Positions 30,831 through 38,456 of a stretch of DNA of 64,000 bases are shown one piece after another. The translations under genes and the position numbers were made by a program. The notes below the pieces were generated by a model that had not been told where the DNA came from, ran no database searches, and saw nothing but the letters and a program-made list of their open reading frames with translations. This DNA is from Afipia massiliensis (GTDB lineage Bacteria > Pseudomonadota > Alphaproteobacteria > Rhizobiales > Xanthobacteraceae): the NCBI RefSeq assembly GCF_014203115.1, contig NZ_JACHIJ010000002.1:310001-374000 (forward strand), written 5' to 3'. The first letter of the stretch is position 1, and the number at the start of each line of letters is the position of its first letter.

Positions 30831-31142
30831 ATGTTTCGCAAACTCGCACTTGTATGCATCGCGGCAGCAGCTCTCGGTGCGGCTGCATTGACGCCCTCCG
30901 CTGCCTCGGCGCGGGAATGGCGCAGCGTCGGTGTCTTGGGTGGCGGCGGACACGGCGGCTGGCACGGTGGACATAGCGGCTGGCATGGCGGTCATCACCA
31001 CCATCATCATCGTGGCTGGGGCGGTCGCGGCTGGGGCGCTCCGAGCTACTTTGCGGGTGGCGGTTACGGCGGCTGCTATGTTCGCCGCCTGGTTCCCACG
31101 CCCTACGGCTATCGGGAGCGGCTGGTAAATCGCTGCTACTGA
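30831..31142 (+). CDS. Small secreted His/Gly-rich protein, paralogue 1
   Basis: A 103-residue protein with a clear signal peptide (MFRKLALVCIAAAALG, cleavage near ASA). The mature part is Gly/His/Trp-rich and includes a run of six His (HHHHHH). It ends with GGCYVRRLVPTPYGYRERLV and a final NRCY, shared with the next gene. The two C-terminal cysteines probably form a disulfide; the His run is likely to bind transition metals (inference). Start has AAGGAG upstream. A strong terminator follows at 31183-31213. Confidence 0.7.
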   Translation: MFRKLALVCIAAAALGAAALTPSAASAREWRSVGVLGGGGHGGWHGGHSGWHGGHHHHHHRGWGGRGWGAPSYFAGGGYGGCYVRRLVPTPYGYRERLVNRCY

Positions 31143-31182: not shown

Positions 31183-31213
31183 GACCGGCCGCCAAAAGCG
31201 GCCGGTCTTTTTT
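31183..31213 (+). terminator. Rho-independent terminator after His-rich gene 1
   Basis: Stem GACCGGCCGC / GCGGCCGGTC with loop CAAAA, followed by TTTTTTG. It separates the two paralogous genes, so the second gene needs its own promoter or read-through. Confidence 0.92.
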
Positions 31214-31307
31214 GTCGCACCGGCGGATCGAACCATCCGCGGGCACGCATCGACAGACATGCAGGGACACATCAAGGCGCCCCGCGCCAAACCGAAGGAG
31301 ACTTGTC

Positions 31308-31568
31308 ATGTTGCGCAAACTCGTTCTTGGACTGGCTGCTGTCGCTGCTCTGTCCACCACCGCCATGCTTCCCACCGCCGCTTCAGCCAAGGGCAAGGGC
31401 TGGCATCATCACCATCATCATGGTCACCATCACGGCCACGGCCACTGGGGTGGCGGGTACGGCTTCTTCGCCGGCGGTTACGGCGGCGGCTACGGCGGCT
31501 GCTACGTGAAGCGCCTGGTCGATACGCCGTATGGCCTGCGCTATCGCGTGGTGAACGTCTGCTACTAA
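31308..31568 (+). CDS. Small secreted His/Gly-rich protein, paralogue 2
   Basis: An 86-residue relative of the gene 166 bases upstream: signal peptide MLRKLVLGLAAVAALSTTAM with cleavage near ASA, then a central HHHHHHGHHHGHGHW tract and Gly-rich segment. It ends GGCYVKRLVDTPYGLRYRVV and a final NVCY. The C-terminal block (GGCYVxRLVxTPYG...VNxCY) is the most conserved part and suggests a small disulfide-bonded fold. ATG 31308 has GAAGGAG upstream; the frame opens much earlier, but that part is not signal-like. Confidence 0.7.
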   Translation: MLRKLVLGLAAVAALSTTAMLPTAASAKGKGWHHHHHHGHHHGHGHWGGGYGFFAGGYGGGYGGCYVKRLVDTPYGLRYRVVNVCY

Positions 31569-35393: not shown

Positions 35394-36896
35394 TCAGCGC
35401 TTCGCCTCGTAGTTGTCCGCCACCAGCTTGTTCAGCAAGCGCACGCCGTATCCCGATCCCCAGCTGCGGTTCAGATCCGACGCGGGAACCCCCATCGCCG
35501 TACCGGCGATATCGAGATGCGCCCACGGCGTATCGTCGACGAAACGCTGCAGGAACTGCGCAGCAGTGATCGAACCGCCGTTGCGGCTGCCGGTGTTCTT
35601 CATGTCGGCGAACTGCGAGTCGATCTGCTTGTCGTATTCGGGACCGAGCGGCATGCGCCACACGCGCTCGCCGGTCTCCTTCCCCGCAGCTGTCAGACGC
35701 TCCGCGAGCTTGTCGTCGTTCGAGAACATGCCAGCATAATCAACGCCAAGCGCCACCATGATCGCGCCGGTGAGCGTCGCCAGATCGACCATGAACTTCG
35801 GCTTGTGCTTTTTCGCCACATACCAAAGCACGTCGGCCAGCACGAGGCGGCCTTCGGCATCGGTGTTGATGATCTCGATGGTCTGTCCCGACATCGACGT
35901 AACAATGTCACCAGGCCGCTGCGCGTTGCCGTCCGGCATGTTTTCAACGAGGCCGATCGCGCCGACCACATTCACCTTCGCCTTGCGTGCGGCCAGCGCG
36001 TGCATCAGGCCAACGACGCAGGCCGCGCCGCCCATGTCGCCCTTCATGTCTTCCATGCTGCCGGCCGGCTTGATCGAAATGCCGCCGGTGTCGAAGCACA
36101 CGCCCTTGCCGACGAAAGCGATCGGCTGCTCACCGGCCTTGCCGCCGTTCCAGCGCATGATGACCATGCGGCCGTCGTGTTCCGAACCTTGCGAGACGCC
36201 GAGCAGCGCGCCCATGCCGAGTTTCGTCATCGCCTTGACGTCGAGAATCTCGACCTTGACGCCGAGTTTCCGCAGCAGTGCTGCACGCCGCGCGAATTCC
36301 GCGGGGAACAGCACGTTCGGCGGTTCATTGACGAGATCGCGCGCGACCAGCACGCCGTCCACAATATGATTCTCCGGCGTAAACGCCTTGCGTGCCGCGG
36401 CGACATCGGCGACCGCAACCGAGAACTGCGCGCGCAGCGGCGCATTGTCGCCGTCCTTTTTCGTGGTCTTGTAGCGGTTGAACCGATAGGCGCGCAGCCG
36501 GACGCCCGACGCGATCGAGGCGGCCTGCGATCCCTTCATCGCGCCCGACGAAAGCTCGGCGAGAATCGTAACGGCCTCCGTGCCGGCGGTGATCTTGGCG
36601 GCGATCTTGCCGCCGAATTTCAGGAAGTCGCTGTCCTTCAGCGAAGCCGTCTTGCCGGCGCTGAGGACGATCAGGCGACCGGCCTTGAGGCCTTCCGGCG
36701 CCAGGATATCCATCGTGGAGCCGCTTTTCGCCTTGAACTGGTTTGTGGCCGCCGCGCGCTTGACCGCGTTTGCCGCCGGCCCCAGCGCCTTGATCGTCGC
36801 GGGCCCGAACTTGAGCGTTTCGTCGCAGAACACCACCAGAACGCCGCGTGGGGCAGCGGAAAACGGTACGAAGCCGACCTTCACGGCGTCGGTCAT
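35394..36896 (-). CDS. pepA: Leucyl aminopeptidase
   Basis: A 500-residue M17 aminopeptidase that removes N-terminal residues from peptides. The metal and active-site blocks are intact: [16 protein letters not shown] (Lys and Asp), [19 protein letters not shown], and [16 protein letters not shown] (Asp, Glu, Arg). ATG 36896 is chosen because GGAGG lies 8 bases upstream; the frame opens two codons earlier at TTG. It is divergent from the lpt genes, a conserved neighbourhood in alphaproteobacteria. Confidence 0.95.
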
Positions 36897-37255
36897 AAGC
36901 AAATCCTCCAGATAGTCGCGGCTTGCGCAGCAAAGGGACCAGAATCCGGCGGACGCTCAGATTCGGGACATGAGACGGCGCACTATGACGCGTTCCGGCG
37001 TGCGCTGCCAAGCGCGCCGCAATCAAGCCCGCCTACGGCAGCAGCCGGTTGCCCCCGGAGTGGCCCCAAAGCAACGATGATGTTTTATTAACCACAGTTG
37101 GCACCCAGCCTCAGGTCGGCCATTTTGTTGACCAATCAAAGGGATGCTATGAAATAAGAATGTGCCGGAAAGCTCGATTCCGCGCCTGGGGGAACTTCGC
37201 AAGAGGTTTGGGCGCGCTCACGAAATCCGGCTGGAGTTGGGGATACAACTGCCCG
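36897..37255. other. Divergent region between pepA and the lptF position
   Basis: A 359-base gap. A plausible sigma-70-type promoter for the plus strand (TTGTTG, 17 bases, TATGAA) lies at about 37124-37152, followed by about 100 bases before the lptF-remnant ATG. No gene is evident; open frames here lack coding character and ribosome sites. Confidence 0.4.
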
Positions 37256-37354
37256 ATGGGCTCGATCGATACCACTGTTGCCCGGACGGCAATGCCGTCG
37301 TCCGCCCGGACTATCGCGACCGCACGGCTCGTCCGGCGGTGGGCGTTGGCGTGA
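37256..37354 (+). pseudogene. lptF: lptF remnant (apparent in-frame internal deletion)
   Basis: In alphaproteobacteria the LPS exporter permease gene lptF normally precedes lptG and encodes about 390 residues. Here only 32 codons remain. They start MGSID, the N-terminus I associate with LptF in this bacterial family, and end ARLVRRWALA with a stop 13 bases before the lptG ATG, as expected at a normal lptF-lptG junction. All transmembrane segments and the periplasmic jellyroll are missing. It could be a real deletion, an assembly error, or an unrelated small frame; a complete lptF is not present in this window. Confidence 0.45.
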
Positions 37355-37367
37355 GGCGGAAGCGCGC

Positions 37368-38456
37368 ATGGTGACGACAATTCTCGCACGCTATTTCGCC
37401 GCCCGTTTCGTGATCGCATCGGTCATGACCTTCGGCGCGATCTTCGTGCTGGTCATTACCGTCGACTACATCGAACTGATGCGCCGCGCCGGAAGCGTGC
37501 CGAATCTGTCGGGTCTCTTTGTCGCGCAGACCGCGCTGTTTCGCGTGCCGCTGTCGCTCGAGAAACTGATGCCGTTTTGCATTCTGATCGGTGCAATGGT
37601 GTCGTTCCTCGCCTTGTCGCGGCGGCTTGAACTCGTTGTGGCGCGCGCCTCCGGCATCTCGGCCTGGCAGTTCATAACTCCTGCTCTGCTCAGCGCACTC
37701 ATCCTCGGTGTCCTTGCAACTGTGCTCTACAATCCGATGTCGGCGGAGATGCTCGAACGCGCCAAGAGCATGGAGACCAAGATCTTCACCGATGGTGCGC
37801 CAGCGAACCCGGATGGCGCAGGCTTCTGGCTCAATCAATCGACCAGCGAAGGACAGAGCATCATCAACGCCGCCCGGAGCCAGGGACAAGGCGCGCTCCT
37901 GACCGGCATCACGGTATTCAGATACGACACGTCCGGCGTTTTCAGGGAACGAATCGAGGCGAAGGAAGCCACCCTTGAACCCGGCCAGTGGGTGTTCAAA
38001 CAGGTACGCAGGTACAAGCTCGATAGCCCGCCAGAGGAGCAAGATACCTTCACACTGGTCACGAGCCTCACCCCGGCCCAGGTCCGGAACAGCTTCTCCA
38101 CTCCCGAAACCGTGTCATTTTGGCAACTCCCGGACTACATCAGGTCGTCCGAGAACTCCGGCCAGGCCACAGCCGGTTACCGCCTGCAGTACCAGAAGCT
38201 CATCGCGCGCCCATTTTTATTGGCTGCAATGGTGATGCTCGCAGCCGCTGTGAGTTTGCGGTTCTTCCGCTTCGGCGGCGTGCAAAAGATGGTTTTGAGT
38301 GGCGTTGCAGCAGGGTTTCTGCTCTATGTCCTCTCGAAAGTAACTGAAGATTTAAGCAAGGCCGAGTTGATGCATCCGCTCGCTGCCGCGTGGTTGCCCG
38401 TTTGCGTGGGCGGCCTCTCGGGATTTTTGGCTTTGCTGTACCAGGAGGACGGGTAG
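37368..38456 (+). CDS. lptG: LPS export ABC transporter permease LptG
   Basis: A 362-residue permease of the LptB2FG complex, which extracts LPS from the inner membrane. Six transmembrane helices are seen, with the N-terminal TILARYFAARFVIASVMTFG and the coupling-helix-like segment LSRRLELVVARASGISAWQF after helix 3. A periplasmic beta-jellyroll spans about residues 130-260. The C-terminal helices include FLLAAMVMLAAAVSLRFFRFG. The stop overlaps the lptD GTG by one base. Its partner LptF is only a remnant directly upstream. Confidence 0.93.
   Translation: MVTTILARYFAARFVIASVMTFGAIFVLVITVDYIELMRRAGSVPNLSGLFVAQTALFRVPLSLEKLMPFCILIGAMVSFLALSRRLELVVARASGISAWQFITPALLSALILGVLATVLYNPMSAEMLERAKSMETKIFTDGAPANPDGAGFWLNQSTSEGQSIINAARSQGQGALLTGITVFRYDTSGVFRERIEAKEATLEPGQWVFKQVRRYKLDSPPEEQDTFTLVTSLTPAQVRNSFSTPETVSFWQLPDYIRSSENSGQATAGYRLQYQKLIARPFLLAAMVMLAAAVSLRFFRFGGVQKMVLSGVAAGFLLYVLSKVTEDLSKAELMHPLAAAWLPVCVGGLSGFLALLYQEDG

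What the first reader, a model, noticed from the sequence alone, without database searches (positions are those of the whole stretch)
37256..37368. lptF appears to be internally deleted next to intact lptG-lptD
At the place where lptF is expected there are only 32 codons, starting MGSID (N-terminus I associate with LptF in this bacterial family) and ending 13 bases before lptG like a normal junction. LptF and LptG are both needed in LptB2FG. Either lptF lies elsewhere, the exporter works without it, or the assembly collapsed here.
Basis: partly seen in the sequence, partly recalled or inferred. Interest (0 to 1): 0.75.

Follow-up and report, generated by a model that had tools for sequence, protein, structure and literature searches.

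The report
Gutted lptF kept as leader
In this Afipia-type bacterium an intact copy of the LPS-export gene lptF sits 133 kb away, while its old place before lptG holds a 32-codon stub made of the gene's two ends, which is likely kept so that ribosomes translating it can start lptG.

Summary
At 37256-37354, between divergent pepA and lptG, a 32-codon ORF stops 13 nt before lptG. Its first 18 codons match the start of lptF from relatives with pepA-lptF-lptG, and its last ~13 codons match the end: an internally deleted lptF. A full-length lptF lies 133 kb away beside O-antigen genes. It is no assembly collapse: 25 of 29 held Afipia genomes show the split, five of them on one contig. In 15 the stub has the same length, no gaps and a kept stop (TGA, TAA or TAG), while codons 7-32 drift freely (pN/pS 1.1; lptG 0.15). 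In 9 more the same start motif opens a 36-50-codon ORF that overlaps the lptG start. I infer that the open frame, not the peptide, is kept: a leader that couples translation to lptG, made from the husk of the gene once there. Translation is untested. Against it: most clade-A lptG starts have their own Shine-Dalgarno, and conserved hairpins may explain part of the constraint. lptF and lptG are also apart in four other genera; one Bradyrhizobium has an operon lptF and a spare one. A new variant of a known kind.

The parts
35394..36896 (-). pepA (leucyl aminopeptidase, label from sequence similarity across relatives), divergent upstream neighbour
   Evidence: ORF; conserved beside lptF or lptG in relatives
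37186..37212 (+). leader hairpin upstream of the stub
   Evidence: 5 of 6 pairs with changes on both sides in 15 genomes; model match at the same place before intact lptF in 3 of 28 loci
37238..37245 (+). conserved start-region motif TGGGGATA, 10 nt before the stub ATG
   Evidence: motif plus ATG found once upstream of lptG in 24 of 25 split Afipia genomes; similar sequence before intact lptF
37256..37354 (+). 32-codon stub ORF, internally deleted lptF: codons 1-18 from the lptF start (37256-37309), codons ~20-32 plus stop from the lptF end (37313-37354)
37283..37304 (+). hairpin inside the stub
   Evidence: 93.3% of cells paired, 2 of 8 pairs with changes on both sides
37355..37367 (+). 13-nt spacer between stub stop and lptG, same length as in six intact relatives
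37368..38456 (+). lptG, intact, 362 aa
   Evidence: PF03739 E 4.7e-61 over 1-351 of 353
   Evidence: ORF, sequence

Best explanation
The 32-codon ORF is an internally deleted lptF, made of the first ~18 and last ~13 codons of the gene, likely kept as a leader whose translation would deliver ribosomes to the lptG start 13 nt downstream. Shown: an intact lptF exists 133 kb away beside O-antigen genes; the stub carries lptF's start motif, start, end and junction; in 15 genomes it keeps length, frame and stop while most of its codons drift. Inferred: lptF was first duplicated, the distant copy took over the protein function, and the operon copy lost its middle in frame. Inferred and untested: the stub is translated, and lptG translation depends on it by termination-reinitiation, as it would have depended on full-length lptF before.
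For: Full-length distant lptF. Both ends of the stub fit lptF. 15 of 15 clade-A genomes: 99 nt, no alignment gap from stub ATG to lptG ATG, stop kept with three different stop codons, codons 7-32 without amino-acid constraint. In 2,000 neutral simulations the stop is kept in all 15 in 0.1% and together with no internal stop in 0.05%. Start motif with ATG in 24 of 25 split Afipia genomes, and all 24 ORFs end -7 to +13 nt from lptG. Stub start region has the same anti-SD energy (-5.5) in 24 of 24, while lptG's own is near background (-3.1 or weaker; background mean -2.2) in 9 of 24. A Bradyrhizobium with operon lptF plus an unlinked intact copy shows that the intermediate exists.
Against: No expression data. 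lptG has its own SD-like site in 12 of 15 clade-A genomes (-5.6 to -8.4), mostly stronger than the stub's, so coupling may not be needed there. At +14 nt coupling in E. coli pairs fell by 40-80% (PMC10666635, passages). Lack of internal stops alone is not striking (15.2% of simulations). 572 of 1,250 positions, and 47 of 69 start codons, 100-150 nt upstream also read into the -10..+15 range. Conserved hairpins could explain the lack of gaps. G003 lacks the motif, and in g63 G146 the remnant has no ATG, so the stub can be lost.
Confidence: 0.55

Rival explanations
1. The leader is kept as RNA structure: the hairpins upstream of and inside the stub regulate the lptG mRNA (attenuation, stability or protein binding), and the open frame is incidental.
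For: Upstream hairpin with changes on both sides in 5 of 6 pairs; 94.0% of cells paired against 88.8% in shuffles, covariation score 0.288 against 0.191, reached by 0 of 500 shuffles. It also sits before intact lptF in 3 of 28 such loci searched.
Against: Does not explain why a stop is kept at the same place by three different stop codons. Helix 3 has no pair with changes on both sides. No Rfam match.
Confidence: 0.22
2. The stub is an unconstrained scar: the deletion happened once in the ancestor of clade A, and its constant form is chance or too little time.
For: Codons 7-32 drift freely, pN/pS 1.11. No internal stop in 15.2% of neutral simulations. In g63 the remnant has lost its ATG in G146.
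Against: Mean pairwise difference 0.34 in codons 7-32 shows that time was long enough to change a third of the sites; stop kept in 15 of 15 in only 2 of 2,000 simulations; no gaps in the stub while the leader upstream has gaps; start motif in 24 of 25.
Confidence: 0.15
3. The stub encodes a small protein with a function of its own.
For: Codons 2-6 are conserved at positions 1 and 2 (0.08, 0.10) but not at position 3 (0.34).
Against: No amino-acid constraint in codons 7-32; different length and sequence in 9 other Afipia genomes; no Pfam match.
Confidence: 0.05
4. Assembly collapse of a normal lptF at this junction.
For: None beyond the look of the site.
Against: Same arrangement in 25 genomes, including single-contig G007, G013, G014, G016 and G028; intact lptF found elsewhere.
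Confidence: 0.01

Closest known systems
Short upstream ORF that only delivers ribosomes to a coupled downstream gene (review PMC12548453, passages read)
   Same: Short ORF ending close to the start of the next gene, peptide not conserved
   Different: Here the ORF is the gutted remnant of the gene that stood in that place; translation not shown
lptF-lptG pair of the family (intact in Bradyrhizobium, Tardiphaga, Rhodopseudomonas representatives)
   Same: Same upstream neighbour pepA, start motif and junction
   Different: lptF there is full length and next to lptG
Termination-reinitiation pairs that encode subunits of one complex (PMC10666635, abstract and passages)
   Same: LptF and LptG are partners in LptB2FG (recalled); short distance between the ORFs
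   Different: The upstream partner's protein is now made elsewhere
Operon pseudogene
   Same: Most of the gene is deleted
   Different: Start, frame and stop held constant in 15 genomes

Membership tests
LptF (distant gene C2:480491-481645) | Full-length LptF/LptG permease domain | tested here: met
   PF03739 1-352 of 353, E 7e-74
LptF (distant gene C2:480491-481645) | Closer to LptF than to LptG of relatives | tested here: met
   62.7% identical to the operon LptF of G004; groups with LptF of the family (that tree held LptF only)
LptF (distant gene C2:480491-481645) | Works in LptB2FG | not testable with these tools
   Needs experiment
translational-coupling leader ORF | Own start region | tested here: met
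   Motif plus ATG in 24 of 25; anti-SD energy -5.5 in 24 of 24
translational-coupling leader ORF | Stop within coupling distance of the next start | tested here: met
   +13 in 15, -7 in 8, -4 in 1 of 24; +13 is at the weak end
translational-coupling leader ORF | Frame kept but peptide free to vary | tested here: met
   clade A only
translational-coupling leader ORF | Downstream gene poor in its own initiation signals | tested here: inconclusive
   lptG SD near background in 9 of 24, clear in 12 of 15 clade-A genomes
translational-coupling leader ORF | Translation of the leader raises translation of the next gene | not testable with these tools
   Needs reporter or ribosome profiling
amino-acid attenuator leader peptide | Conserved run of regulatory codons | tested here: not met
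   No such run in the codon-by-codon listing of 15 genomes

The most novel reading that the evidence does not exclude
When an operon gene departs, its start and stop can be retained by selection as a coupling leader for the gene behind it: a gene husk exapted into a translation device. lptF has left lptG in five genera of this family, so it may have happened more than once, which would make it a general birth route for coupling leader ORFs.
Probability: 0.45. Interest if true: 0.68.

Novelty: new variant of a known kind. Interest (0 to 1): 0.52.

Why it matters
It turns an apparent loss of an LPS-export gene into a case where what selection seems to keep at an operon site is a ribosome route rather than a protein. 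The family offers intact, duplicated, gutted and decaying states side by side for testing how coupling leaders arise, and it shows that LptF and LptG, partners in one complex, need not be encoded together.

Tried and rejected
Rfam on 36800-37500: nothing up to E 1. RNA-unfolding version of coupling: predicted accessibility of the lptG start is higher without the leader in 12 of 15 genomes, equal in 1 and lower in 2, by 0.10 or more in 5; mild support at most, and the two folds differ in length, so I did not choose between unfolding and reinitiation on it. Replacement of lptF by a foreign gene: the distant LptF groups within the family, so not supported. All relocated LptF of Afipia and g63 form one clade (support 1.0), sister to the operon LptF of G004 (0.978); in the smaller tree G004 grouped with G033 and G035 instead. 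The LptG+PepA tree does not unite the split genomes. Ancient duplication with differential loss, or recovery of an operon copy in G004, both remain open. The 3' ends of leaders outside clade A show no clear lptF match, so I claim the two-ended stub for clade A only. Peptide-level match of the clade-A C-terminus is weak (mean 21.9; shuffled 17.5, sd 3.7); the DNA offset scan carries that claim. A thought that some lptF-lptG are fused ORFs came from a large open-frame column and was dropped, because in G030 a stop with a 12-nt gap lies between them. The family-wide search of 252 genomes was not used for adjacency, because its match list was cut. Paper searches: listings only apart from the passages; no listed title concerned an lptF remnant, and no paper held both Afipia and lptF.

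Full report
What is there. The window lies at C2:310001-374000 of its genome. At 37256-37354 a 32-codon ORF is followed by 13 nt and then the lptG ATG at 37368. pepA lies divergently upstream.

lptF is not missing. A search of the whole genome with PF03739 gives two full matches: lptG here, and a gene at C2:480578-481630 on the minus strand. From its MSAID start this gene has 384 codons, C2:480491-481645. It matches 1-352 of 353 profile positions with E 7e-74 and lies between a GDP-mannose dehydratase gene and an O-antigen ligase gene. It is 62.7% identical to LptF in the intact operon of G004.

Who else. Named contigs with the same lengths as those of some relatives are Afipia: A. clevelandensis (G014), A. 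birgiae (G020), Afipia sp. OHSU_II-C1 (G015). All 29 held genomes of the genus were searched. In 25 lptF and lptG are apart, in one (G004) they are adjacent, and in three drafts of 84-85% completeness (G006, G024, G026) only lptF was found. Of 36 further genomes from 36 other genera of the family, 32 have the two side by side and 4 do not: G032, G061, G072 and G090 (my reading of the coordinates). In G072 no pepA was found beside lptG. Four more members of the genus of G061 and two more of that of G090 are split too. Neighbours of the distant lptF differ between clades. In the window's own clade they are an O-antigen ligase and gmd, in that of G007 a glycosyltransferase-like gene; in G005, G016 and G017 I recognised no sugar gene next to it (names other than the Pfam hits are my reading of the sequences).

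What the stub is. In 15 of the 25 split Afipia genomes (clade A) the old site holds a 99-nt ORF ending 13 nt before lptG. Among twelve near relatives with intact lptF, the gap is 13 nt in six (G004, G035, G093, G068, G078, G092) and 1-2 nt in six. Sliding the clade-A stubs along intact lptF of the six 13-nt relatives, codons 1-18 score best at the true start in 6 of 6; codons 7-18 alone rank 1 in 4, 2 in one and 17 in one. Codons 20-32 plus stop and spacer score best at the true end in 4 of 6, second in G035, and 96th of 1,132 in G092; without stop and spacer the ranks are 1, 8, 1, 2, 2 and 276. The stub is therefore best read as lptF with about 350 codons removed in frame.

What is kept. Over the 15 genomes the alignment has no gap from the stub ATG to the lptG ATG, while gaps occur in the leader upstream. 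Codons 7-32 differ about equally at the three positions (0.36, 0.35, 0.32) with pN/pS 1.11, against 0.15 in the start of lptG; codons 2-6 are conserved at positions 1 and 2 only. The stop is kept in 15 of 15 as TGA, TAA or TAG. The other two forward frames of the stub region carry stops in 5 and 6 of 15 genomes. In 2,000 neutral simulations on an lptG tree scaled to the observed divergence, no internal stop in any taxon occurs in 15.2%, the stop kept in all in 0.1%, and both in 0.05%. These figures depend on that tree, a simple substitution model and a consensus root.

Other Afipia. The start motif (GGGGAY, then 9-12 nt, then ATG) occurs exactly once upstream of lptG in 24 of 25 split genomes; G003 has none. 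From all 24 sites the ORF ends near the lptG start: +13 nt in 15, -7 in 8, -4 in 1, with lengths of 32, 36, 44, 45, 47 and 50 codons. As a control, 572 of 1,250 positions and 47 of 69 start codons 100-150 nt upstream also read into the -10 to +15 range (clade-A stub frames included), so this is supporting evidence only. In g63, G132 has a clear start remnant in a 49-codon ORF with a 5-nt gap, G146 a remnant without ATG, and G090 is unclear.

Leader structure. A hairpin upstream of the stub has changes on both sides in 5 of 6 pairs; of the two inside the stub one has 2 of 8 and the other 0 of 6. A covariance model from 13 clade-A sequences, searched over 48 other loci, gave 15 matches up to E 10. 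Six of the seven best lie 34-95 nt upstream of the start on the right strand: three before Afipia leaders (L040, L042, L054, of 10 such loci) and three before intact lptF (L129, L036, L125; E 0.011, 0.066 and 0.46, of 28 such loci). This suggests, without proving it, that the leader too came from lptF.

How it likely works. Coupling by termination-reinitiation needs short distances; in E. coli pairs +14 nt reduced it by 40-80%, and the last 15 nt of the upstream gene suffice (PMC10666635, abstract and passages). A review names short upstream ORFs whose only role is to deliver ribosomes (PMC12548453, passages). The stub fits that role: a start region of constant anti-SD energy (-5.5 in 24 of 24) before lptG starts whose own site is near background in 9 of 24. 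Against it, the lptG site is clear in 12 of 15 clade-A genomes, and in ten of these stronger than in the stub by a wide margin or overlapping the stub's stop. Translation and dependence are not shown.

History. The relocated LptF of Afipia and g63 form one clade. Bradyrhizobium G218 carries an operon lptF and an unlinked intact copy, 95.1% and 90.7% identical to LptF of the Bradyrhizobium G075. Duplication, take-over by the distant copy and in-frame gutting of the operon copy is the simplest route; it is inferred. Whether operon lptF was lost once or several times is unresolved.

Noticed in passing
window 30831-31142 and 31212-31568: Two neighbouring ORFs encode small Gly/His-rich proteins with similar C-termini (GCYVRRLV.TPYG / GCYVKRLV.TPYG), likely a tandem pair.
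   Followed up: no
L097 (G019:C5:109000-117500): G019 has, besides its lptF and lptG, an extra adjacent pair of divergent LptF/LptG-family genes (E 3.9e-27 and 8.7e-25).
   Followed up: no
L248 5161-6330 (G218): A Bradyrhizobium genome with a second, unlinked, intact lptF next to none of the LPS genes I could recognise, besides its operon copy.
   Followed up: partly
window 37186-37212; L129 2888-2937; L036 3116-3163; L125 2842-2890: A leader hairpin with compensatory changes upstream of the stub and, in three relatives, of intact lptF; no Rfam family matches it in the window.
   Followed up: partly
L100-L105 and L061 (genera g34, g45, g5): Further genomes in which lptF is not beside lptG; G032 has an MGSF... 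ORF ending 26 nt before lptG.
   Followed up: partly
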